Of a stretch of 64,000 bases of DNA, positions 1,998 to 46,495 are shown piece after piece (position 1 is the stretch's first letter; each line of letters opens with the position of its first letter). The DNA is from Paenibacillus sp. FSL H8-0548. GTDB taxonomy: Bacteria > Bacillota > Bacilli > Paenibacillales > Paenibacillaceae. The translations under genes and the position numbers were made by a program. The DNA lies in NCBI RefSeq assembly GCF_038630985.1, contig NZ_CP152049.1:5600501-5664500 (forward strand). Direction: 5' to 3'. Below the pieces are notes generated by a model. It saw nothing but the letters and a program-made list of their open reading frames with translations, made no database searches and was not told where the DNA came from.

Positions 1998-2079
1998 AAG
2001 TTTTGCGTAGCAAAACTAGCATCGTAAGCATAGGCTTTAAGTTTTGCGTAGCAAAACTGACTTCGTAAGCATAGGCTTC
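1998..2079. repeat. Two tandem 41-bp units, each with a perfect palindrome
   Basis: The spacer between the priming transferase and the glycosyltransferase consists almost wholly of two 41-bp units (1998-2038 and 2039-2079). They differ at only a few positions. Each unit holds AGTTTTGC-GTA-GCAAAACT, an 8-bp inverted repeat with a 3-nt loop, followed by a conserved tail ending CGTAAGCATAGGCTT. Transcribed with the operon, each would form a small hairpin without a T-run. An intercistronic RNA-processing or stability element, or a small REP/MITE-like repeat, are both possible. Confidence 0.85.
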
Positions 2080-3721: not shown

Positions 3722-3852
3722 TAAGGGCATCTAACCCCTCCTCACGTCACACCCTTGACGATTAACGTCTAAGGTCGGCTGACCCACAGCATGACCGAGT
3801 GCCTCCGGTGATAGAGGTGCAGGAGACATTACCTAATCTATACGACCCTTCC
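3722..3852 (-). ncRNA. Structured operon RNA, candidate EAR (epsC) antitermination element
   Basis: The 200-nt gap between the tyrosine kinase and galU holds no ORF but can fold well on the minus strand. Outer arms AAGGG (3850-3846) and CCCTT (3727-3723) could close the structure. Inside lie CCTC/GAGG and GGTC/GACC hairpins and a helix CCTT-a-GACG/CGTC-AAGG around a TTAAT loop. The Bacillus subtilis EAR element sits at the same place, between the second and third eps genes after the chain-length regulator and kinase, and lets RNA polymerase read through terminators in the long operon. The identification rests on position and fold; I could not align it to the published consensus. A cyclic-di-GMP riboswitch was considered, but its conserved core is absent. 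Confidence 0.6.
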
Positions 3853-3871: not shown

Positions 3872-4564
3872 TTATGCGTCGCTCTTCTCCCCGTAGTAGT
3901 AGGAATAGATATCTGAATGATTACGATTAATTTTGTTAAGTACGACACCGATAAGCTTTGCTTTGACATGATCAAGCGACGCCTTCGCCTTAAGAACGAC
4001 ATCCTTCTTCACCTTGCCTGAATCAACGACGAGCACGACTCCATCGCTTTGAACAGCAACAATTTGAGCATCAGTCACTGACATAATAGGCGGAGTGTCG
4101 ACGATGATCATATCGAACTGCTCTCTCGCCTGCTTCAGAAGATTCGCCATTGGCTCTGATGAGAGCAGCTCTGAAGGATTAGGAGGTGTTGGCCCCGCCT
4201 GTATAATGGACAGATTATCCGTGTTCGTATACTGAATAATATCCTTCAGCTCTAGTTGGTTTAATAGAGCCGTCGTTATTCCGCTTCGATTGGACTTTCC
4301 GAATATGTGATGCTGGGACGGCTTGCGCAAATCTGCATCGATCAGCAGCACCTTTTTGTTAGCCTGAGCAAACGCGACAGCCATATTGGCACAGGTTGTA
4401 CTCTTTCCTTCACTCGGCTTGGACGAGGTGACCATAATGATTTGCAGCTTCTGATTGATAGTCGAGAACTCGATATTCGTTCGCAGCATGCGGTAGCCTT
4501 CCGATATTGGCGATTTTGGATTTAACTCCGTAATCAGGTTCCATTTAGGAATCAAACGAGACAT
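3872..4564 (-). CDS. CpsD/CapB-family tyrosine-protein kinase
   Basis: A 230-residue cytoplasmic BY-kinase that regulates exopolysaccharide assembly together with the membrane chain-length protein upstream. It has Walker A SSKPSEGKSTTCANMA near residues 47-62, Walker A' LLIDADLRKPSQH near 74-86 and Walker B IIVDTPP near 153-159. The C-terminus ends in a Tyr-containing cluster (DIYSYYYGE), the site of autophosphorylation in this family. As usual in Firmicutes, the transmembrane activator is a separate protein: the preceding gene overlaps this one by 20 bp. Length is normal. Confidence 0.94.
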   Translation of the reverse strand: MSRLIPKWNLITELNPKSPISEGYRMLRTNIEFSTINQKLQIIMVTSSKPSEGKSTTCANMAVAFAQANKKVLLIDADLRKPSQHHIFGKSNRSGITTALLNQLELKDIIQYTNTDNLSIIQAGPTPPNPSELLSSEPMANLLKQAREQFDMIIVDTPPIMSVTDAQIVAVQSDGVVLVVDSGKVKKDVVLKAKASLDHVKAKLIGVVLNKINRNHSDIYSYYYGEKSDA

Positions 4565-5300
4565 TTTGTTCCCTCCCCGCTAATTTCGATGATGAAGCAT
4601 TGCTGCTTCTGTCCAATGAATCACGCTCTTCAAACATCGGAATCGATGTCAGCACCGGTACGTCCAGCAGCGCTTCAATATCCTCCTCTGTTTTTACCGT
4701 GTCATCCAAATAATCGAGCAGGAAGGAAATTCCTACGCCAACCATCAAAGCCAGCATGAACGCAACGGCAATATTCATCTTTGCATTCGGCGCTACCGGC
4801 CCGTGATACTCTTTCGGATCGGCTTGGTCGAGTACCGAGACATTGTCAACCTTCATCAGCTCGGGCACCGATTTCTGAAATACGATAGCCACTGCGTTAG
4901 CGATTAAAGCCGCTTGCTCATAAGAATCGTCCCGTACAGATATAGACATGACCTGCGTTTCATTTACCGAGCTTACACTCACCTTTCCGATGAGCTCGCT
5001 ATACGTAACTCCAAGGTCTGGATATTGCTTTACTACCTTTTTCATCATTCGCGGGGTTCTCAAAATTTCTTTATAGGTTTTAATCAGTCCAATCGTGGTG
5101 TTAATCGCCCCAACATCGATGCTTGGCAGCAGCGAGCTGCTGTCCTTATATTGATTGACGATTAATTTAGCGGATGCTTCATACTGTGGCTTGATAAAGT
5201 AGCTGGAGTAAATGCCTATGGTTAGACAGCTGACGGTAATGATTAAAGTAATCATTAGAAGCCTTCTTTTTACGATGAGCCAATACTGTTTCAATTCCAA
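4545..5300 (-). CDS. Wzz/CapA-type chain-length regulator and kinase activator
   Basis: A 251-residue membrane protein that sets polysaccharide chain length and activates the CpsD kinase. It has an N-terminal membrane segment (about residues 15-40), an extracytoplasmic region carrying the Wzz fold, and a second membrane segment near residues 178-198 preceded by the proline-containing VAPNAKMN motif. A cytoplasmic tail follows that normally docks the kinase. I place the start at a TTG codon (5300), with a perfect GGAGG 7 nt upstream. This gives the N-terminus LELKQYWLIVKRR that is usual in the family. The ATG at 5327 would add nine residues and has a poor ribosome site. Probably the first core gene of the operon. 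Confidence 0.9.
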   Translation of the reverse strand: MELKQYWLIVKRRLLMITLIITVSCLTIGIYSSYFIKPQYEASAKLIVNQYKDSSSLLPSIDVGAINTTIGLIKTYKEILRTPRMMKKVVKQYPDLGVTYSELIGKVSVSSVNETQVMSISVRDDSYEQAALIANAVAIVFQKSVPELMKVDNVSVLDQADPKEYHGPVAPNAKMNIAVAFMLALMVGVGISFLLDYLDDTVKTEEDIEALLDVPVLTSIPMFEERDSLDRSSNASSSKLAGREQNVSFDS

Positions 5301-5462
5301 ATGATTTCCTCCGTTACTCGTAGTCATCCGTCCCTACATGAATCATTAATTATTCTTAATGAATATTAAAATTTTTTAATTATTCAAAACGCGACCTTTT
5401 GGGCATCGTTGATGAACAGTGAAATCCACTCGCATGAATTTCTATGATAAGGACGGAACCTA

Positions 5463-6679: not shown

Positions 6680-7866
6680 CTTAACGCTCCTAGAACTAAC
6701 CCTCCAACGGGCTCTCCAACTAACCAAACTACGCTGCTATCCTGCACTTTGGCAGGATAGCAGCTGGTTTTTGCGAGCTCCACATGTCTATGTTGTACCA
6801 CAGCAATATAGAGAGCCTTACAGGTGCGACTGAAGCCGAATTCAGTCCATTCTAATGCAAATGTGCAGGATAGGCAGCTTGGTGAGACTGAAAAGCGCGA
6901 AGTTAGTGCTAATATGCAGGATAGCCTGCGTGCGGAGGAAGCAGGGGTTCGTGCTCGGAGTAAATGTACGACAATCCTAGAACTAACCCTCCAAGCTGTT
7001 CTGCAACGGGTTCTCCAACTAACCAAACTACGCTGCTATCCTGCACTTTGGCAGGATAGCAGCTGGTTTTTGCGAGCTCCACATGTCTATGTTGTACCAC
7101 AGCAATATAGAGAGCCTTAGAGGTGTTTCTTAAGCCGAAACCAGTCTATTCTAATGCAGTTGTGCAGGATAGGTAGCTCGATGAGGCTGAAAAGCGCGAA
7201 GTTAGTGCTAATGTGCAGGATAGCCTGCGTGCGGAGGAAGCAGGGGGACGTGCTCGGAGTAAATGTACAACTATTCTAGAACTAACCCTCCAAGCTGTTC
7301 TGCAACACTTCCTCCAGCTAACCCTCCAACCTATTCTGCAACGGGCTCTCCAACTAACCCAATTACGCTGCTATCCTGCACTTTGGCAGGATAGCAGCTG
7401 TTTCTTCGAGCTCCCGCAAGGCTATGTTGTACCGCAGCAATATAGAGAGCCTTACAGGTGCGACTTAAGCCGAAATCAGTCTATTCTAATGCAGATGTGC
7501 AGGATAGGTAGCTCGATAAGGCTGAAAAGCGCGAAGTTAGTGCTAATGTGCAGGATAGCCTGCGTGCGGAGGAAGCAGGGGTTCGTGCTCGGAGTAACTG
7601 TACAACTATTCTAGAACTAACCCTCCAAGCTGTTCTGCAACGGGCTCTCCAACTAACCAAACTACGCTGCTATCCTGCACTTTGGCAGGATAGCAGCTGG
7701 TTTTTGCGAGCTCCACATGTCTATGTTGTACCACAGCAATATAGAGAGCCTTACAGGTGCGACTGAAGCCGAATTCAGTCCATTCTAATGCAAATGTGCA
7801 GGATAGGCAGCTCGATGGGGCTGAAAAGAGCGAAGTTAGTGCAAGGGTGCAGGATAGCCTGCGTTG
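6680..7866 (+). repeat. Array 1: four tandem copies of a ~299-bp structured repeat
   Basis: Four near-identical units, seen from the hairpin anchors starting at 6733, 7032, 7367 and 7666 (periods 299, 335 and 299; the longer one carries a 36-bp internal duplication rich in CTAACCCTCCAA). Each unit contains a perfect 13-bp hairpin GCTGCTATCCTGC/GCAGGATAGCAGC with a 6-nt loop, an ACATGT palindrome, and two further direct copies of GTGCAGGATAG, one continuing into CCTGC. The period is not a multiple of three, so the overlapping short ORFs change frame between copies and are unlikely to be genes. The array stops about one base before the TAA of the peptidase gene. Function unknown. Confidence 0.93.
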
Positions 7867-30326: not shown

Positions 30327-30484
30327 ATAGTTTCAATAATGTTCCTATCGTACTGAATTGATACGATAATACAATAAAGTGCCTTCTGTTCAATTGAATC
30401 TAGGGATGTTATCTTAATCGGAGAACAGGCGAATAAGTCTTATAGGCAATCACAGGACAATAGCGAATGGGATCTTCAAGGCGG

Positions 30485-31989
30485 TGGTTAGTGCAAATGT
30501 GCAGGATAGCCTCCGTGCGGAGGAAGCGGGGTTCGTTCTTGGAGTACATTTACGGCTATCGTAGTACTAACCCTCCAACCAGTTCTTCAACGTTTCTTCC
30601 AACTAGTCCCCCAACAGGCTCTCCAACTAACCCAACTACGGCGCTATCCTGCACTTTAGCAGGATAGAAGCCGCTTTATCGAGCTCCCACGTGTCTATGT
30701 TGCATCGCTGCACTATAGACAGCCTTGCAGGTGCATCTTGAGCTGAAATTAGTCTATTCTAATGCATACGTGCAGGATAGGCAGCTCAGAGAGGCTGAAA
30801 AGCGCGTAGTTAGTGCAAATGTGCAGGATAGCCTCCGTGCGGAGGAAGTGGGGTTCGTTCTTGGAGTACATTTACGGCTATCGTAGAACTTACCCTCCAA
30901 CCAGTTCTTCAACGTTTCTTCCAACTAACCCAACTGCGGCTTCTATCCTGCACTTTAGCAGGATAGAAGCCGCTTTATCGAGCTCCCACGTGTCTATGTT
31001 GCATCGCTGCACTATAGACAGCCTTGCAGGTGTATCTTGAGCTGAAGTCAGTCTATTCTGTTGCATTCGTGCAGGATAGGCAGCACAGAGAGACTGAAAA
31101 GCGCGAAGTTAGTGCAAATGTGCAGGATAGCCTCCGTATGGAGGAAGCGGGGTTCGTGCTCGGAGTGAATTTTTGACTATTGTCGAACTAACCCACCACC
31201 GAGTCCTCCAACGTGCTCTCCAACTAACCCAACTACGGCGCTATCCTGCACTTTAGCAGGATAGAAGCCGCTTTATTGAGCTCCCACGTGTCTATGTTGC
31301 ACTCCAGCACGATAGACATCCTTATAGGTGTATCTTGAGCTGAAGTCAGTCTATTCTAATGCATACGTGCAGGATAGGCAGCACAGAGGGAATGAAAAGC
31401 GCGAAGTTAGTGCAAATGTGCAGGATAGCCTCCGTATGGAGGAAGCGGGGTTCGTGCTCGGAGTGAATTTTTGACTATTGTCGAACTAACCCACCACCTA
31501 GTCCTCCAACGTGCTCTCCAACTAATCCAACTACGGCTTCTATCCTGCACTTTAGCAGGATAGAAGCCGCTTTATCGAGCTCCAACATGTCTATGTTGCA
31601 CCGCTGCACTATAGACAGCCTTGCAGGTGCTTCTTGAGCTGAAATCAGTCTATTCTAATGCATTCGTGCAGGATAGGCAGCTCGGAGAGGCTGAAAAGCG
31701 CGAAGTTAGTGCAAATGTGCAGGATAGCCTTCGTGCGGAGGAAGCGGGGCTCGTTCTTGGAGTACATTTACGGCTATCGTAGAACTAACCCTCCAACCAG
31801 TTCTTCAAAGTTTCTTCCACCTATTCCCACAACGTATTCTCAAACTAACCAACTACGGCGCTATCCTGCACTTTCGCAGGATAGAAGCCGCTTTATTGAG
31901 CTCCCACGTGTCTATGTTGCATCGCTGCACTATAGACAGCCTTCCAGATGCAACTTGAGCTGAAGTCAGTCTATTCTAATGCATACGTG
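30485..31989 (+). repeat. Array 2: five tandem copies of the ~299-bp structured repeat
   Basis: Same family and orientation as the array at 6680, about 24 kb away. The hairpin anchors start at 30644, 30943, 31241, 31540 and 31861 (periods 299, 298, 299 and 321). All copies keep the 9-bp core CTATCCTGC/GCAGGATAG. Copies 2 and 4 extend it to a perfect 14-bp stem starting GGCTTCTATCC; copies 1, 3 and 5 have a mismatched lower stem. Each unit also has a CCTCC/GGAGG hairpin with loops GTGC or GTAT and a CACGTG-like palindrome. The last unit ends inside the stop codon of the GH31 gene. Non-coding by the same frame argument as array 1. Confidence 0.93.
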
Positions 31990-34041
31990 CTATCCTATAT
32001 GATAACGTCTCCCTGAATAATTGCCGCTGCGGGTAATCTTCAGCTCATTATCCAGCTCAAGTTGAACCCAATTGTATTCCCCTTGGCGGTAGCTGAAGGA
32101 CGTTCCGTCATCCTCATAAAGAACAGTTGTGAGCAGACCTGTGCCATAGCTCTTTAAGGCGATATCAAATACAGCATCATCAGCTACATTTTGGAGTGGA
32201 GCAGCAAGCGGCAGCAGCGTCCCATCCTTCACAAATACCGGAATGCGTGTCAGGTCCGCCGTAATTTGATACGCAGTTCCGCCCTCATACATCTCATTCG
32301 TCCAATAACAATGCCATCGACCTGCTGGCAAATAAACAGAACGGCCGGTTTCACCAGCAACAAGTGGCGCAACGAGCAAAGATTCACCCATCATATAAGC
32401 ATCGTCGATGCCAAACGTGTTCGGGTCATCTGGATAATCCATAACTAGCGCTCGGAACGGCGGTAATCCGTCGATGCTGTATTTTGCATAGCTTGTATAT
32501 AGATAAGGGATCAGCGCCATGCGAGTCTCAAATAAAGAGCGGCAAATGGCTCTGACCTCTTCGTAATTATCCAGAAACTCACCCTTAATATTTTTGTCGC
32601 GATCGACCTGCATCCAAGGCGGATTCGGAATCCGCCAGCAATTCAGCAGCGCCATTGGCGAGAAAACAGCAGTTTGAATGCGGCGAATCAGATCCTCTGG
32701 CGACTGTGCCTGACGTACCTCAGGTGACCAAAGCAAGCCAGAGAAGCCACAGTTCACGACGCCGCGTATAAACACCTTGTGGTCATATAAGTCACTATAG
32801 AGTACAAATGGAAACGATGACGCCAGTGCTCCTGATGCTCTTACCTGAGATAAGGTACGACGACCAATCGCTTCAAATGGGGCTTGAATTGCTTCTTGAT
32901 ATAACGTACCGATTTGGTTATGCATCTGTTCGCCGTCCATGCCTGACGGGAACTTAGAGATGTCAGGAAATGACCAATTGGAATGGACAAAGTCAGAGCT
33001 GTCGCATTCATCAAGCTTGAAGCCCGCGATCCCTTTCTCAACGAATTCAGTTAAATGATGGTTCGCGAAAATCTCCTTGCCCTCTTTTACAGCCAAATCA
33101 GGAACAAGTCCTTCCCATACCTCATAATCTCCGGAATGCGGCAGCAGTGCATCGTACATAGGCGATGAAGGGTGAATGAACAGATGCTCCCATAAATTCA
33201 CGCGATAATTTTTGCTGTAGAGCTCTTCCAGCATTGCCTCATGATCAGGAAATCTTCCATCATCCCACACAAAGGAGCAAGAATAAGCTTTCGTTTGCCA
33301 GCCTGGCTCGAAGCCAAATACATCAACCGGCATTTGATCGGCACGGAATTGATCGGCTAGTCGCGTTACATCCTCTTTCTTCGCTGCGCTGTATGCGCGG
33401 TACCACATGCCGAGCCCCCACATAGGCGGAAGCACGCCTCCTCCAGAGAACAAATTGTAGCGCTGCACAGCATTCAACATATTGGGGCCTTCAAAAAAAT
33501 AAACATCTATGCCTTCCGCAGCCGGAATATCGACAACTACCGTGCGATCCCCCTCCGCCGCCTGATAGCCGTACAATTCAATTTCCGAGGTTCCGATTTC
33601 CTTCTGCTCATCTTTTTTTCCTGCTGATGCCCCTTTGCGCGTATTCGTTCCACAATAAAAGGTTGCATAACGCGCCGTATCTACGAACACGCCATAGCCC
33701 GCAGTCGATACATAGAACGGAACCGGGGCATGACTATCGCCTGTATCCGCTACAGGGTCGCTGTTCACACGAATGACTTTTTTTCTTCCTGTATGATCCA
33801 CACGATGAAGCTGCAGGCCAAAGCCATAAATATGCTCTTCAGCCCCCAATGGAATTTCAATATAAACGCCTCGTGAGGTTGCTTTGATTTCAATCTGATT
33901 CTCTGCAAAAGGTGCTGTGCCGGCACAATTCAGCTTCTCTAGTGCTCCTGCCTGTAGTTCATTTTTCCTCAAGCTTACTGGCGTATGAGCCTCAGGCTGG
34001 CCAAAGCTTAATTTCCATACACCGTTTGCGATTTTCTTCAT
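31990..34041 (-). CDS. GH31-family alpha-glycosidase
   Basis: A 683-residue glycoside hydrolase (alpha-glucosidase or alpha-xylosidase type) without a signal peptide, so probably cytoplasmic. An N-terminal beta-sandwich carries the IYGFGLQLHRVDHTGRK block near residues 69-85. The catalytic barrel contains GMWYRAYS near 211, FGFEPGWQ near 243 and the nucleophile region IAGFKLDECDSSDF near 340. The C-terminal region has the LPAGRWHCYW strand. ATG with a plausible purine-rich site upstream. Its TAG lies in the sequence where repeat array 2 begins. Next to GH95, about 140 nt apart on the same strand, so the two may be co-transcribed. Confidence 0.9.
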   Translation of the reverse strand: MKKIANGVWKLSFGQPEAHTPVSLRKNELQAGALEKLNCAGTAPFAENQIEIKATSRGVYIEIPLGAEEHIYGFGLQLHRVDHTGRKKVIRVNSDPVADTGDSHAPVPFYVSTAGYGVFVDTARYATFYCGTNTRKGASAGKKDEQKEIGTSEIELYGYQAAEGDRTVVVDIPAAEGIDVYFFEGPNMLNAVQRYNLFSGGGVLPPMWGLGMWYRAYSAAKKEDVTRLADQFRADQMPVDVFGFEPGWQTKAYSCSFVWDDGRFPDHEAMLEELYSKNYRVNLWEHLFIHPSSPMYDALLPHSGDYEVWEGLVPDLAVKEGKEIFANHHLTEFVEKGIAGFKLDECDSSDFVHSNWSFPDISKFPSGMDGEQMHNQIGTLYQEAIQAPFEAIGRRTLSQVRASGALASSFPFVLYSDLYDHKVFIRGVVNCGFSGLLWSPEVRQAQSPEDLIRRIQTAVFSPMALLNCWRIPNPPWMQVDRDKNIKGEFLDNYEEVRAICRSLFETRMALIPYLYTSYAKYSIDGLPPFRALVMDYPDDPNTFGIDDAYMMGESLLVAPLVAGETGRSVYLPAGRWHCYWTNEMYEGGTAYQITADLTRIPVFVKDGTLLPLAAPLQNVADDAVFDIALKSYGTGLLTTVLYEDDGTSFSYRQGEYNWVQLELDNELKITRSGNYSGRRYHIG

Positions 34042-39410: not shown

Positions 39411-39462
39411 CTCCTGACCTCTTGCATGCCTTGCAAGCGCTCCCCCAGCTGAGCTAAGCCCC
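39411..39462 (-). pseudogene. Truncated tRNA-Ala(GGC) relic
   Basis: Read on the minus strand, the sequence begins GGGGCTTAGCTCAGCTGG and continues through a D-arm. An anticodon stem CTTGC/GCAAG follows, closing the 7-nt loop AAGGCAT with anticodon GGC, then AGAGGTCAGGAG. It breaks off where the T-arm should begin: there is no TTCGA loop, no 3' half of the acceptor stem and no CCA. What follows is a GTCC-GCGA-GGAC hairpin and unrelated sequence. It cannot make a working tRNA and is best read as the scar of an integration or rearrangement at a tRNA-Ala gene. Confidence 0.75.
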
Positions 39463-39499: not shown

Positions 39500-40015
39500 G
39501 GGATGTGTAACCAAACAGCTCGTACTAGTAAACCAATCCTGTACTCACGCATTATAGCTCCGTTTCAGCTCATTTCCAGCCGTCTCGTCTCCATGCAGCT
39601 AGGCTGCAAATGCGCAGGAAAGTCTACTTTATTGGCTGTCACGGGCAGAGCTTGGCTGCCGCTGCCTTTGTTCTAGGCATGTTTGTATATCTCCTCTATA
39701 CTTCACGAAACACACACACACATCGTCTTTTCCCTCAACTTTCCCACGTTCGATGCCGCTCCTCAAATCCTCACGTCTTCTACTCCCAGCGCGAAAGCTA
39801 TCCTGCACTTTTGCAGTAACTTCATGCGATTGGGACTCTCTAGCAAACCTATCCTGCACTCACGCATTATAGATCGTCATCTCAGCTCATCTAAAGCCAT
39901 CTGATCTCCATTATTGGCAGCTATCCTGCTTACGTACAGGATAGCTGCCCTAAACCATTAAAAAGAGTAGGCTACCCTGCAAATGTGCAGGATAGCCTGC
40001 TCATTCTTATGATTG
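39500..40015 (-). repeat. Array 3: decayed, inverted copies of the repeat family
   Basis: Two diverged copies about 315 bp apart (compare 39526 and 39841: each has TAG-AAACC, ATCCTG-ACTCACGCATTATAG, then TCAGCTCAT). On the minus strand the second reads TATAATGCGTGAGTGCAGGATAGG, closely matching TAATGCATACGTGCAGGATAGG of arrays 1 and 2, so the array is inverted. It ends with two hairpins: a perfect 13-bp GGCAGCTATCCTG/CAGGATAGCTGCC at about 39917-39950, and GGCTACCCTGC/GCAGGATAGCC at about 39970-39998 with one mismatch. No gene is seen in 39322-40120. Confidence 0.72.
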
Positions 40016-40224
40016 ACTGTCAGGTCAAAGCTCTTGCTGCTGCCGCAGCATCATTATCAACAGGTTCCGAGAATGCATAATTTCCTATACAATAAAAAAA
40101 AGAAAGCCCTATACCTAAAGTGAAGTGCCCCCTGTCAAGTAGACAGTGTAAAAAACAAAAAAAGTTAATTTATTTCCCCTCAGTTCAATTAACAGAGCTG
40201 AGGGTTTTGTTTTCAGCTCTCGTG

Positions 40225-41079
40225 TTATGCAGTTCGTCGGTATTCCATAGGGGACAAGCCATTTAAACGCTCTGTATAGCGGTAACGGTTGTAGTAACGC
40301 ATATAATTTCTCACATCATGAAGGACATCTTCATAGGTCTCGTATTTGGTGAGATAATAGCTTTCAGCTTTTAATGTACCCCAAAATCGTTCAATCGGTT
40401 GGTTATCCAAACATCGACTTACGCGAGACATGCTTTTAGTAAAATGGTGCTTAACCTGTAGTCGATTGTATGCATGTGAAGTATATTGGAAGCCCCTGTC
40501 GCTATGGAGAAGTGGGGCTACGCCCGGGTTTCTTTTGTAAGCCTTCTGTACGGTGTCTATGACGAGTTTATTGTTGTTAGAGTGGCTTAACACCCATGAA
40601 ACAACGGAGTTATCGTAGAGATCAAGGATAGCGCTCAAATAGGCTTTACGACCATTCCCATACTTTAATTCTGTAACATCTGTACACCACTTACGATTAG
40701 GAGAATCTGCGCAAAATTCACGGTTCATCACATTTTCAGCCACATGCATCTCGGAGGCTTTCAGGTAGTTTGGTCGCTTCCTGCGAATGACGGCTTTTAA
40801 CCCAAGAGCACGCATGATTCGGTAATAACGTTTTTTGTTAAAATTCTTTTTGAGTTTTCGGTTCATTTGTATGCAGATTTGACGATAGCCAAGTATTCCT
40901 TTCCGCTTGTCATAGCGAAGTTTCACTTCTTTAGCGAGCGAAAGGATTTCAAGTTCCCTGATGGATGGTTTCCATTTGAGCCATTTATAATAGGCAGACC
41001 TGGCGACTCCTGCTAGCTTACACAGCATGGTGATGGCGTAGCCTTTCTCCGTGTGCAATTCTTGAATAGCTCGATACAA
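40225..41079 (-). CDS. IS3-family transposase OrfB (rve integrase core)
   Basis: A 284-residue catalytic half. It has an N-terminal HTH_21 region (KLRYDKRKGILGYRQICIQM near residues 50-70) and then the integrase core with the DDE triad: Asp in WCTDVTELKYG, Asp in LHSDRGFQYTS and Glu in NQPIERFWGTLK, spaced as usual for DD(35)E. The listed start is a TTG, but the frame is open upstream into the OrfA region. The protein is probably made as an OrfAB fusion by -1 frameshifting. Confidence 0.92.
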   Translation of the reverse strand: MYRAIQELHTEKGYAITMLCKLAGVARSAYYKWLKWKPSIRELEILSLAKEVKLRYDKRKGILGYRQICIQMNRKLKKNFNKKRYYRIMRALGLKAVIRRKRPNYLKASEMHVAENVMNREFCADSPNRKWCTDVTELKYGNGRKAYLSAILDLYDNSVVSWVLSHSNNNKLVIDTVQKAYKRNPGVAPLLHSDRGFQYTSHAYNRLQVKHHFTKSMSRVSRCLDNQPIERFWGTLKAESYYLTKYETYEDVLHDVRNYMRYYNRYRYTERLNGLSPMEYRRTA

Positions 41080-41099
41080 GTCTGCATGCCGAACTAAGG

Positions 41100-41792
41100 T
41101 TAGCGTGTATTTCGTCGCCGGATCTCTGCCAACTTTTTTGCGAGGGCATTCTCCATTTCTAAGTACTCGTTGCGTGCTTCAAGTTCTTTGATTCTAAGCT
41201 GGAGTCGATCATGATCATCCAGCTCCCCTGCAGGCCTATTACGGCCCCGATTGTCATGAAGGGCTTCCACACCCCCGGATGTATATTTACGAACCCATGC
41301 ATACACCTGTTGATAAGAAACATCATACTTCTCAATGGATTTCTGATAATCCAAATCATTGGCGATCGTATACTGTACGATTTCAATGCGTTCTTCGAAA
41401 GTGGTTCTACGTCCTTTGTTCATGCGGGATAGCCCTTTCCCTTTACGAGTAGGTTTTATTTCTATCCCTTTAGTATACTTGGAAATCCATCTCGTCAAAA
41501 CGCTTTTACTCGAAATATGGTACTTCTTCGTTGCCTCTCGTATAGAATGATTACCGGATAGGACATCCCTAACTGCAGCCAGTTGCAGATCCTCTGAATA
41601 GGCCTTACACCCACTAGATTCCTTTAATCCTTCATTTCCATCTGCTTTATACTTCCTTATCCAATCCGTAAGCGTACTGCTGTCTACCCCTAGCCGTTTC
41701 GCCTCAAAACTGGGGGTTGTTTCATTCAGAAGGCATCGCTTTACGACGCGTAACTTTACCTCGAAAGAAATTGGACTCCTTTTGGACATCAT
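41100..41792 (-). CDS. IS3-family transposase OrfA (DNA-binding half)
   Basis: About 230 residues with two helix-turn-helix modules (near residues 8-55 and 135-190) and a C-terminal leucine-zipper-like helix (RLQLRIKELEARNEYLEMENALAKKL). This is the longer IS150-type OrfA. The start at 41792 has GGGAG 5 nt upstream. Near its end the message contains A-AAA-AAG, where a -1 slip leads into the OrfB frame. Confidence 0.9.
   Translation of the reverse strand: MMSKRSPISFEVKLRVVKRCLLNETTPSFEAKRLGVDSSTLTDWIRKYKADGNEGLKESSGCKAYSEDLQLAAVRDVLSGNHSIREATKKYHISSKSVLTRWISKYTKGIEIKPTRKGKGLSRMNKGRRTTFEERIEIVQYTIANDLDYQKSIEKYDVSYQQVYAWVRKYTSGGVEALHDNRGRNRPAGELDDHDRLQLRIKELEARNEYLEMENALAKKLAEIRRRNTR
41133..41139 (-). 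promoter_or_regulatory. Programmed -1 frameshift site (A6G)
   Basis: The heptamer A-AAA-AAG occurs in the OrfA frame at its Lys-Lys codons. After a -1 slip the reading continues VGRDPATKYTLTLVRH directly into OrfB without a stop. This is the standard IS3 strategy for making the active transposase. Confidence 0.8.
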
Positions 41793-41922
41793 AAAAACTC
41801 CCATCATTGTAGAAGTAGAAGTTTTTGTTTTTTCTACTGTCTACTATGATGGGAGCATATCAAAGGCTCTCTCTGCAACAATTTTTAAGCTCCTTGCATT
41901 TTCGCTTGAGCTGTTTATTCGA

Positions 41923-44188: not shown

Positions 44189-46495
44189 CTACTGAGAAGC
44201 CATCGTCACTTTGCCAATTTGCGGCGTATACGCATTGCCGCTTGTATTATTCCAGCGCATCTTCACATAATGGATATTCGACATGTTGCTTAAGCTGTAG
44301 GTATATTTTATCCAGTCACCTGAAGCGCCGGTAATCGTTGGGGTAATGGAATTCCATACAGATCCGTCGAATGAAGTATAGAGACTGAAATGCGACAAGG
44401 CTTCTGAAGGCCAGAAATACGTCTCAGCGGCAAATGACCTTATATCCTGCTGTTTCCAGACGATTTCCTCATTCGTCGCTGTCGTTCTTTTCACACGGGA
44501 AGGATCTCCTCCAAATTTGGCCGTGTTGGCCGTGTCAAAATTCAGGTTTGACGAATGACTAATCGTTTTGCTCCAATCATTCAACTCATCATGAAACGAA
44601 TACGTCATCGTCACTTTGCCAATTTGCGGCGTATACGCATTGCCGCTTGTATTGTTCCACCTCATCTTCACATAGTTGACATTGGTCAGATTGCTAATGG
44701 TGTACGTATGTTTTTTCCAATCGCCTGATCCACCGGCAATCGCAGGAGTGACCGCGATCCATGCGGAGCCATCGGATGAAGTATAGAGGTTAAAATGCGA
44801 TACCCCTTCTGAAGGCCAATAATACGTCACTGCCGTGAATGACGTCATGCCGTTCTGCTTCCAGACTACTTCCTCATTCGTCGCTGTCGTTCTTTTCACA
44901 CGGGAAGGATCCCCTTCGAATTTGGCTGTGTTGGCCATATCAAAATTCAAATTTGCCGTACGGCTATACGTCTTGCTCCAATCATTCAAATGATCCACAA
45001 AATGTCTTGTCGGCTTGGCCCGGTCTTTCGCAGGCAACGTATTGTCTGATCCCCAATTCGCATCTACGCCCGGACCAAACAGCGGCCAAGGCTTGGAGCC
45101 CAAGAACGATGGTTTGACGGTAAGATATAACGATGCGGGAATCGTTGATCCTGAGCTTAGCTCCCCCCATTGAATGACACTGGAAGTCAATCTATTGGCG
45201 CCAACATAGTGGCCCGATCCTGAGGTCGAGATGCTTGATAATTGATTCCCTATTATGTTTTGATTCACGGTAGAAGTATTGTCGCTCCCGATCTTCCCAC
45301 TTGCATGATTGCGAAACCATGTATTGCGCGGCCCTGTGGCTGTCATGATGCTGTCATAGGACTTCGAGTTGTCTGCATAGCTTTCTTTAAAGCTGTTGCC
45401 TTCAATTAAGTTCATGTAGGCGTAATTCGAATGGAAGGCCAGATCATTGTATCCCGTATAGGAAGCCTCCACAGAATTATAGCTGACCACGGAGTGATTT
45501 GCCCCGAGCTGAAGCAAGATATGATGTCGTAAATCCCAAACCTTATTATCCGTAACCTGAATCCCCGTAGAGCCGTTAACGACGATTCCATACGCATAAC
45601 CGCCAACATCTTTAATAAACGCGTCATGAACAAAATTCCGTTCCACAACCACATCTCTGCTATTGTCGATGGAAATATGTCCCCGGCCGCTCTTAATGGA
45701 CTCCATATCCTTGACATACCCTTTCACTACTCTGTTGAAAACGAGGCTATTCGTATTTTCTATAGTGGGCTGGACGGTTCTGGCAAGCCTTATTTTTTCC
45801 ACTCCTACATTAGACAGCAGATTAAGCTTACTCACCATCGGGAGCTTGGCGGAGGGATAATCCAGCCCCAACTTCATGTCCAGATTCAACGTATTTCCGC
45901 TTTTGGATAAAATTTTAACGATCTGCGATTCGGTATAGCTTCCCCAAGCTACACGACCTCCGGAAAGATACAGAAGGACATAGTCGCCGGCATTCAAACT
46001 ACTTGCGTTCGATACGGTGACGGCCCCACTTCCCGCAGCCGGGGAGCCGATTACAGCTATGGGAGCGCCCGGAGCTCCGCCGTCGAAGCGCAGCTCCGTA
46101 TTGGGATTGGAAGAATCGCCGATATAAAAAGTGGTCGTCTCCAAAGCATCTCCGCGTATAAGGATATCTCCAGATGTGATGCTGAGCGGGGTCTTAAAGT
46201 AATAATCGCCGTTCGGAAAATAAAGGATGCGTTTGCCTGACGTGCTGCCAAGGATGCTATTCACTACTGAGGCAGCATCCACGCCCGTATCATTCGCCGG
46301 CAGCCCGCTCATCGTTACATTAATGGTGGTCCATCCACCTGGGTCGATCCATTGCGTATTGCTCCATCCGTTGGAAGGCATGTGGCTTGACGGAACAGCG
46401 CCATAATCGAAAGCAAATGCCGAGACGGGACTTACCGTTACCAGAAGAATGACCAGCAGCAGTCCCCTACTCAAAAGACGGATTTTTTCCATCAT
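44189..46495 (-). CDS. Secreted beta-helix protein with two tandem C-terminal modules
   Basis: A 768-residue exported protein. Order: signal peptide (cleavage near AFA, about residue 28), a pectate-lyase-superfamily beta-helix (about 45-500) opening with the [14 protein letters not shown] and [18 protein letters not shown] blocks, then two near-identical modules of 135 residues. Each starts LNDWSKT and ends [13 protein letters not shown]. Such modules follow catalytic domains in Paenibacillus lyases and probably bind carbohydrate. There is no SLH anchor, so it should be free or loosely attached. It probably cleaves the same uronic polysaccharide as the PL8 enzyme, but catalytic residues cannot be pinned down by eye. 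Last gene of the importer block. Confidence 0.85.
44201..45005 (-). repeat. 405-bp tandem duplication inside the beta-helix gene
   Basis: The two C-terminal modules are also repeated at DNA level: CATCGTCACTTTGCCAATTT begins at both 44201 and 44606, and long identical tracts follow with the same codon choices. The period of 405 bp is 135 codons. The close identity points to a recent in-frame duplication. Confidence 0.9.

What the first reader, a model, noticed from the sequence alone, without database searches (positions are those of the whole stretch)
6733..6764. Compensatory base changes in the core hairpin across three arrays
Array 1 has GCTG-CTATCCTGC/GCAGGATAG-CAGC. Array 2 copies 2 and 4 have GCTT-CTATCCTGC/GCAGGATAG-AAGC. 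Array 3 has GCAG-CTATCCTG/CAGGATAG-CTGC. Two lower-stem positions change on both sides and keep pairing (G-C to T-A; T-A to A-T). This suggests that the hairpin itself, as RNA or cruciform DNA, is selected. A caution: array 2 copies 1, 3 and 5 have an unpaired lower stem.
Basis: partly seen in the sequence, partly recalled or inferred. Interest (0 to 1): 0.75.

Follow-up and report, generated by a model that had tools for sequence, protein, structure and literature searches.

The report
Hairpin repeat family in Paenibacillus
A roughly 200-letter non-coding repeat made of four hairpins is scattered through the genomes of several Paenibacillus species; its matching base changes are real, but some look like one hairpin arm being copied onto the other, which bears on the usual inference that matched changes prove a working RNA.

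Summary
In detail: GCTG/CAGC, GCTT/AAGC and GCAG/CTGC lower stems are at the stated places. The hairpin is module H1 of a ~200-nt, four-hairpin intergenic repeat (99 hits, 81 near full length, in 53 clusters; model hits in 24 of 51 genus genomes, own included). On 36 diverse copies the hairpins covary beyond shuffled and slid controls.

Two corrections. Array 3's hairpin is module H2 of a minus-strand element, not the homologue of H1. Array 2 copies 1, 3 and 5 are not unpaired: CGGC/GCCG pairs outside a 1x2 internal loop.

'Selected as RNA or cruciform' is only partly supported. Array 2 copies 2 and 4 differ from 1, 3 and 5 by G to TT in one arm, exactly matching the unchanged other arm; a second array shows AGC to CCCC. 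Between orthologous copies, pairs broke 40 times against 2 two-sided repairs. G-U and A-C events are balanced overall (166:147).

Best reading: a BOX/MITE-like selfish repeat with a terminator-like first hairpin, its palindromes kept partly by arm-to-arm template switching.

The parts
6731..6930 (+). Array 1, element copy 1 (four hairpins H1-H4)
   Evidence: R1 match 1-200 (G000:C1:5607231-5607430)
6733..6764 (+). H1 of copy 1: 13-bp hairpin followed by TGGTTTTT, terminator-like
6788..6811 (+). H2 of copy 1: CTATGTTG...CAATATAG with one G-T wobble
   Evidence: sequence, alignment A1
6847..6873 (+). H3 of copy 1: imperfect hairpin (...ATTC-TAA-TGCA-AATG-TGCA-GGATAG)
6902..6925 (+). H4 of copy 1: imperfect hairpin GTTA...TGCAGGATAGC; its right end is the inverted partner of H1's left arm
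6931..7029 (.). Linker between tandem units, with short CTCCAACTAACC-like repeats
7030..7229 (+). Array 1, element copy 2
7365..7564 (+). Array 1, element copy 3
7664..7863 (+). Array 1, element copy 4; ends 4 nt before the stop codon of a minus-strand M42 peptidase gene
30484..30524 (+). Array 2, leading fragment of an element (H4 end)
30638..30837 (+). Array 2, copy 1 (left arm CGGC-G)
30937..31136 (+). Array 2, copy 2 (left arm CGGC-TT, perfect match to right arm)
31235..31434 (+). Array 2, copy 3 (left arm CGGC-G)
31534..31733 (+). Array 2, copy 4 (left arm CGGC-TT)
31827..31990 (+). Array 2, copy 5, truncated where a glycosyl hydrolase 31 gene ends
39789..39996 (-). Array 3: one element of subfamily B on the minus strand
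   Evidence: nhmmer best match on the minus strand; alignment
39921..39944 (-).
39972..39995 (-). H1 of the array-3 element, followed by CCTACTCTTTTT

Best explanation
The hairpin is the first of four modules in a ~200-nt, non-coding, quasi-palindromic interspersed repeat of Paenibacillus (11-nt inverted ends CTATCCTGCAC...GTGCAGGATAG), a non-autonomous MITE/BOX-like parasite that sits between genes and in places has expanded into tandem arrays with a ~299-nt unit. H1 followed by a T-tract most likely acts as an intrinsic terminator when transcribed on its plus strand and shields the element or the neighbouring gene from read-through. The stem pairs are kept by two processes: structural requirement acting on the copies that still spread, and DNA-level template switching within the palindrome that rewrites one arm from the other. 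Shown: family, architecture, covariation, intergenic placement, T-tract, two block changes in sister copies that match the opposite arm. Inferred: mobility, termination activity, the direction of those block changes, and which process dominates.
For: Family and architecture: 85 DNA matches in the genome (40 of 74 first-look candidates scored); 99 hits in the fetched loci, 81 spanning at least 150 model positions; R1 hits in 24 of 51 genus genomes, own included. Covariation. Placement: 0 of 99 hits has its midpoint in a predicted ORF and 2 touch an ORF end; of the 53 gene pairs that hold them 19 are convergent, against 17 of 112 other gene pairs in the same loci (p 0.004), and 4 divergent, against 27 of 112 (p 0.011). 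Terminator-like: at least 4 T in 7 nt after H1 in 70 of 77 own copies, against 10 of 77 for A in the mirrored left flank, and 30 of 116 and 7 of 116 after H2 and H3; all four H1 of array 1 score as terminators, 4 found against 1.3 expected. Arm conversion: array 2 copies 2/4 carry TT where 1/3/5 carry G, making the left arm the exact complement of an unchanged right arm; in L059 copy 3 the right arm has CCCC for AGC, the exact complement of its left arm; 3 of 76 H1 have 8 or more contiguous outer pairs against 0.06 expected under independence. Weak repair in established copies.
Against: No autonomous partner or target-site duplication was found; no clean empty site in six locus comparisons. 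The genome has no Y1 transposase. Orientation relative to co-directional genes is not biased (17 versus 13, p 0.58), which argues against a dedicated terminator for the upstream gene. The T-tract is weaker in relatives (35 of 80). My idea that first copies of arrays have better H1 stems than later ones failed (p 0.35). The direction of the arm changes rests on parsimony: other arrays carry GGCG-type left arms, but 4 of 77 H1 have a GGCTT left arm, all facing AAGCC, two of them outside the window (L074 and the first copy of L083), so GGCTT could be older than I assume. L059 copy 3 is truncated and also differs further downstream. Sister right arms also differ without gaining pairs (for example L050 and L048). 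None of the 77 H1 loops is inverted (all begin AC or AT), although loop inversion is the strongest footprint of template switching according to PMC8794818.
Confidence: 0.6

Rival explanations
1. The repeat is a functional structured RNA (four-hairpin non-coding RNA or 3' UTR element) and the paired changes are compensatory mutations kept by selection on the transcript.
For: Covariation over four hairpins; H1 inner stem WC-to-GU 31 versus WC-to-AC 14 events; plus strand folds better in 53 of 77 copies, by 4.6 kcal/mol on average over all 77; T-tract after H1; stem columns diverge half as fast as others; element identity exceeds nearby intergenic identity in 7 of 11 comparisons; the folds of one copy are far below shuffles on both strands (z -5.1 and -4.6).
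Against: No overall strand bias (166:147); RNAalifold energy of the full set is lower on the minus strand (-23.6 against -13.5; subfamily B the other way round, -58.8 against -76.2); pairs break more than they are repaired in orthologous copies; 3 of 11 elements are less conserved than their intergenic surroundings and one is equal; no Rfam match at gathering scores over the arrays or in 20 of the 49 fetched own loci; orientation to co-directional genes near random.
Confidence: 0.15
2. The hairpins are DNA sites: a repeated palindromic target (about 51-61 nt apart) for a DNA-binding protein or single-strand transposase, with cruciform or hairpin DNA recognised.
For: Core letters CTAT...ATAG are kept beyond what pairing needs across 116 copies (consensus); modules are regularly spaced; G-U and A-C events balanced as expected for double-stranded DNA; the hairpins fold well as DNA.
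Against: No Y1 transposase in this genome; no candidate protein identified; outer stems covary, which a simple duplex-binding site would not need.
Confidence: 0.2
3. The paired changes are purely mutational: template switching homogenises the arms of any palindrome and no selection on structure exists.
For: Two block changes of unequal length that match the opposite arm; excess of very long perfect arms; two-sided repairs no more than shuffled between orthologues (2 against 1.28); mechanism described in PMC8794818 (abstract and one results section read).
Against: Stem columns are slower than non-stem columns; core compensations are found across species; T-tract kept beside H1; no inverted loop among 77 H1, the strongest expected footprint according to PMC8794818.
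Confidence: 0.2

Closest known systems
Pneumococcal BOX, RUP and SPRITE repeats (PMC3049150; abstract and one results section read)
   Same: Short interspersed repeats predicted to form stem-loops; BOX is modular with variable module number; SPRITE is a hairpin followed by a U-rich tract like a Rho-independent terminator; the authors read them as parasitic elements that move slowly.
   Different: No sequence comparison was made; here four hairpins share one core, the element is quasi-palindromic as a whole and tandem arrays have ~299-nt units.
BrickBuilt MITE of Porphyromonas gingivalis (PMC4596501; abstract read)
   Same: MITE-like intergenic element with tandem repeats of a unit.
   Different: BrickBuilt has 23-nt spacerless repeats; here the repeated unit is ~299 nt and contains a four-hairpin element plus a linker with short degenerate repeats.
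REP/BIME elements with RAYT (PMC2817692 seen in a search listing only; details recalled)
   Same: Many intergenic imperfect palindromes per genome, some clustered.
   Different: No Y1_Tnp gene in this genome; element is ~200 nt with four hairpins.
Template-switch mutations in RNA hairpins (PMC8794818; abstract and one results section read)
   Same: One arm rewritten from the other, converting several mismatches at once.
   Different: Reported there for RNA genes by ancestral reconstruction; here seen between sister copies in tandem arrays of an interspersed repeat, without loop inversion.
Intrinsic (Rho-independent) terminators
   Same: Hairpin followed by T-tract on one strand (H1).
   Different: It is the 5' module of a larger repeat and shows no preferred orientation to co-directional genes.

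Membership tests
MITE | Terminal inverted repeats | tested here: met
   The 11 end positions CTATCCTGCAC / GTGCAGGATAG are Watson-Crick complements in 63 to 77 of 77 copies each
MITE | Target-site duplication / empty site | tested here: inconclusive
   No clean empty site in six locus comparisons; G027 lacks the element at one G071 site but holds other sequence there; a 521-bp indel flush with an element end is seen
MITE | No coding capacity, many copies, intergenic | tested here: met
   the three ORFs of at least 100 aa that overlap arrays 1 and 2 have no Pfam match
MITE | Autonomous relative sharing the ends | not tested
   No search for transposons with these ends was made
REP/RAYT | Y1 (RAYT/IS200-type) transposase in the genome | tested here: not met
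   PF01797: 0 matches in G000; control rings in 5 of 14 genomes
BOX | Homology to boxA/boxB/boxC | not tested
   Only architecture compared, from PMC3049150
Intrinsic terminator | Stable hairpin plus T-tract | tested here: met
   H1 in array 1; 70 of 77 own copies have at least 4 T of 7; only 35 of 80 relatives
Intrinsic terminator | Termination in vivo | not testable with these tools
   No transcript data held
Structured RNA family | Match to a described Rfam family | tested here: not met
   No match at gathering scores over the arrays or in 20 loci
Structured RNA family | Covariation with strand-specific G-U tolerance | tested here: inconclusive
   Covariation met; strand bias 166:147 not significant, H1 inner 31:14

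The most novel reading that the evidence does not exclude
A genus-wide repeat family in which much of the hairpin covariation is made by the mutation process itself: template switching in tandem palindromes rewrites one arm from the other, so that textbook compensatory changes accumulate without selection on any transcript. The arrays would then be a natural bacterial recorder of arm conversion and a negative control for covariation-based RNA discovery.
Probability: 0.3. Interest if true: 0.7.

Novelty: new member of a known kind. Interest (0 to 1): 0.45.

Why it matters
Covariation is treated as the best sequence evidence for functional RNA structure. This family passes covariation tests, yet it contains sister copies in which one arm differs by an unequal-length change that exactly matches the other arm, and its established copies lose pairs more than they repair them. 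It gives a concrete set of loci for measuring how much covariation comes from template switching. It also describes a repeat family, not found in print by the searches made here, that fills intergenic space and may terminate transcription in several Paenibacillus species.

Tried and rejected
Raw G-U versus A-C cell counts first looked strongly plus-stranded (for example H1 inner 28 versus 5 over 77 copies); counting events on a tree removed most of it. The idea that the 5'-most copies of arrays have better H1 stems failed (p 0.35). RAYT/IS200 mobilisation was rejected for this genome. A link of subfamily B with rRNA or tRNA genes was looked for and not found (Rfam in 20 loci including the ten subfamily B loci; tRNAs in 49 loci, one hit, L060, not subfamily B). 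The core with an ACTTTN loop has 0 matches in named genomes and in viral contigs. RNAalifold alone gave a weak consensus on A1 (-13.9 kcal/mol, 16 pairs), so the structure used was drawn by me from the modules and may favour itself against the slid controls. Four rows with truncated or odd ends were dropped from 81 to give 77. In one search the pair L343/L354 was left out because L354 holds six copies, and for L337 I took the second of two copies in L346. Of 15 G016 loci, 10 had a partner among the fetched G068 loci; both sets were fetched because they hold elements, so this is not an estimate of site sharing. Of the other five, three were searched in G068: two reach contig ends, one has a matching left flank and no match at the element; L336 and L344 were not searched. 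The background of gene pairs first used (16 of 111) was a subtraction; one search recounted it (17 of 112) with the same outcome. Literature: four searches showed no paper that I recognised as describing this repeat; two searches were for template switching and BOX elements; three papers were opened.

Full report
WHAT IS IN THE WINDOW. CTATCCTG occurs 42 times in the window, against 1.59 expected from shuffles. Array 1 (6692-7864) has four tandem copies, array 2 (30487-31990) five plus a leading fragment, with a ~299-nt unit. Folding shows that copies 1 and 3 of array 2 still pair their lower stems as CGGC/GCCG around a 1x2 internal loop; copy 5 has the same arms. The array-3 hairpin at 39917-39948 belongs to an element on the minus strand and is its second module; the first module there is 39972-39995. 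So the three-way comparison in the finding mixes two modules, although both share the same core.

THE ELEMENT. A BLAST search of the window's own genome (7.35 Mb, one contig) with one unit gives 85 matches, 40 of 74 candidates having been scored; CTATCCTG-N4-14-CAGGATAG occurs 71 times, its reversed control never. An HMM from eight window copies gives 99 non-overlapping hits in the fetched loci, 81 of them spanning at least 150 positions. The copies align over about 200 nt as four hairpins: H1 (CTATCCTGC...GCAGGATAG), H2 51 nt further on (CTATGTTG...CAATATAG and covarying forms), then H3 and H4, imperfect hairpins that mostly keep TGCAGGATAG on the right. Many copies match on both strands because the whole element is a quasi-palindrome with 11-nt inverted ends. 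The three ORFs of at least 100 aa that overlap arrays 1 and 2 have no Pfam match, and Rfam has no match at gathering scores over the arrays or in 20 of 49 further own loci.

DISTRIBUTION. A covariance model built on 36 copies chosen to be below 87% identity finds the element in 24 of 51 genomes of the genus, own included, at E 0.001 or better; the best other genomes have 45, 38, 16 and 15 hits (at most 49 candidates per genome were scored). Two of these are P. paridis and P. sinopodophylli, by equal contig lengths. Distant forms have changed cores that still pair, such as CTATGTTGGATTTGATCCAACGTAG or TTCTGCTGCATTTATGCAGCAGAA. The exact core is rarer: 6 of 51 genomes of the genus, and 4 of 60 in a wider sample, all four in the same genus; both counts include the own genome.

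COVARIATION. With the four-hairpin structure written by me on alignment A1, 82.9% of cells pair against 79.8% in shuffles, and the covariation score is 0.129 against 0.083 (0 of 500) and at most 0.060 when slid. The number of pairs with a two-sided change, 15 against 12.9, is reached by 55 of 500 shuffles and is not remarkable. With a tree built from the rest of the element and columns simulated independently, H1 outer pairs 1-5 and 7 of 10 exceed the null in the G statistic (p 0.0005 to 0.018 each, uncorrected for 19 pairs; 2000 simulations); by the plain number of paired copies only outer pair 1 does (p 0.019). Of the nine nearly invariant inner pairs one exceeds the null (p 0.036).

WHAT MAKES THE PAIRED CHANGES. 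Three tests cut against a simple RNA-selection reading. First, sister copies. In array 2 the right arm AAGCCGC is the same in all five copies; copies 1, 3 and 5 have CGGC-G on the left, copies 2 and 4 CGGC-TT, an unequal-length change that makes the left arm an exact complement of the right. Other arrays carry GGCG-type left arms with different right arms, so G is the likelier ancestral state; against this, two copies outside the window (L074 and the first copy of L083) also have GGCTT facing AAGCC. In another array (L059) the third, truncated copy has CCCC where the first two have AGC, the exact complement of its own left arm GGGG. I read these as one arm copied from the other, as described for template switching (PMC8794818, abstract and one section read). 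Three of 76 H1 have at least eight contiguous outer pairs against 0.06 expected under independence. None of 77 loops is inverted. Second, orthologous copies. For 11 element pairs at matching sites (ten between G016 and G068, one between G071 and G027), stem columns differ less than the rest (83 of 1090 against 177 of 1110). Of 74 changed stem pairs, 40 broke on one side, 18 stayed paired after a one-sided change, 10 and 2 were unpaired in both, 2 broke with two-sided changes, and 2 changed on both sides and kept pairing, against 1.28 expected from shuffles (731 of 2000 reach 2). Element identity is higher than that of nearby intergenic DNA in 7 of 11 comparisons, lower in 3 and equal within 0.001 in 1; some of the intergenic stretches align poorly. 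Third, strand. Changes from a Watson-Crick pair to G-U and to A-C are balanced, 166 to 147 (p 0.31), over 116 copies; 40 to 42 in the own genome; 117 to 95 in relatives. H1 inner alone shows 31 to 14, p 0.016 before correction for six helices. The plus strand folds better in 53 of 77 copies, while the RNAalifold energy of the whole set is lower on the minus strand.

POSITION AND POSSIBLE ACTIVITY. By a simple ORF caller 0 of 99 hits has its midpoint in a gene and 2 touch an ORF end; convergent spaces are enriched (19 of 53 against 17 of 112, p 0.004) and divergent ones depleted (4 of 53 against 27 of 112, p 0.011); orientation among co-directional genes is even (17 to 13). H1 is followed by a T-tract in 70 of 77 own copies and in 35 of 80 relatives (after H2 in 30 and after H3 in 7 of 116), and the four H1 of array 1 score as terminators. 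I take this as a parasite tolerated where it does not disturb promoters, with a hairpin that probably stops transcription entering from its left. No Y1 transposase is present, and I found no clean empty site; an autonomous partner was not searched for. Ten of 15 G016 loci had a partner with the element among the fetched P. paridis loci (an ascertained set), so movement may be slow. One site shows a 521-bp indel flush with an element end.

VERDICT. On checking the calls I added the plus-strand folding, the GGCTT copies outside the window and the 7-of-11 conservation count; I left the odds as they were, since these weigh in both directions.

Noticed in passing
window 39414-39462, minus strand: A stretch that reads like the first ~50 nt of a tRNA-Ala gene (recognised from memory; ARAGORN calls no tRNA in the window), running into unrelated sequence, ~330 bp from the array-3 element.
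   Followed up: no
window 40121-41862: Two-ORF insertion sequence with rve and HTH_Tnp_1 domains and 41-nt inverted ends (76% complementary), ~125 bp from the array-3 element.
   Followed up: partly
window 1998-2078: Two tandem copies of a 41-nt unit that itself contains the palindrome-like AAGTTTTGCGTAGCAAAACT.
   Followed up: no
window 3724-3834, minus strand: epsC RNA (RF01735, 104 bits); a minus-strand Wzz-domain gene lies at 4545-5327.
   Followed up: no
window 44201-44989: A 405-nt tandem duplication (80% alike, a multiple of three) inside a long minus-strand ORF.
   Followed up: no
L230 1273-1886 (G071): In a relative the element lies inside a ~610-bp stretch with inverted ends GGGCTGTCC...GGACAGCCC (read by eye), absent from the matching site of G027; three other G071 places that match its middle also carry an R1 hit.
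   Followed up: partly
L226 (G068), between two elements: The linker between tandem units is a degenerate minisatellite of CATCAAACC-like repeats, comparable to the CTCCAACTAACC-like linker in the window.
   Followed up: partly
L049, L061, L065-L067, L072, L076, L085, L086, L092 and window 39.4-40.2 kb: Subfamily B elements sit in larger mosaic repeats (up to ~1.1 kb, partly with ~385-nt periodicity) shared at roughly 80-90% in the printed comparisons.
   Followed up: partly
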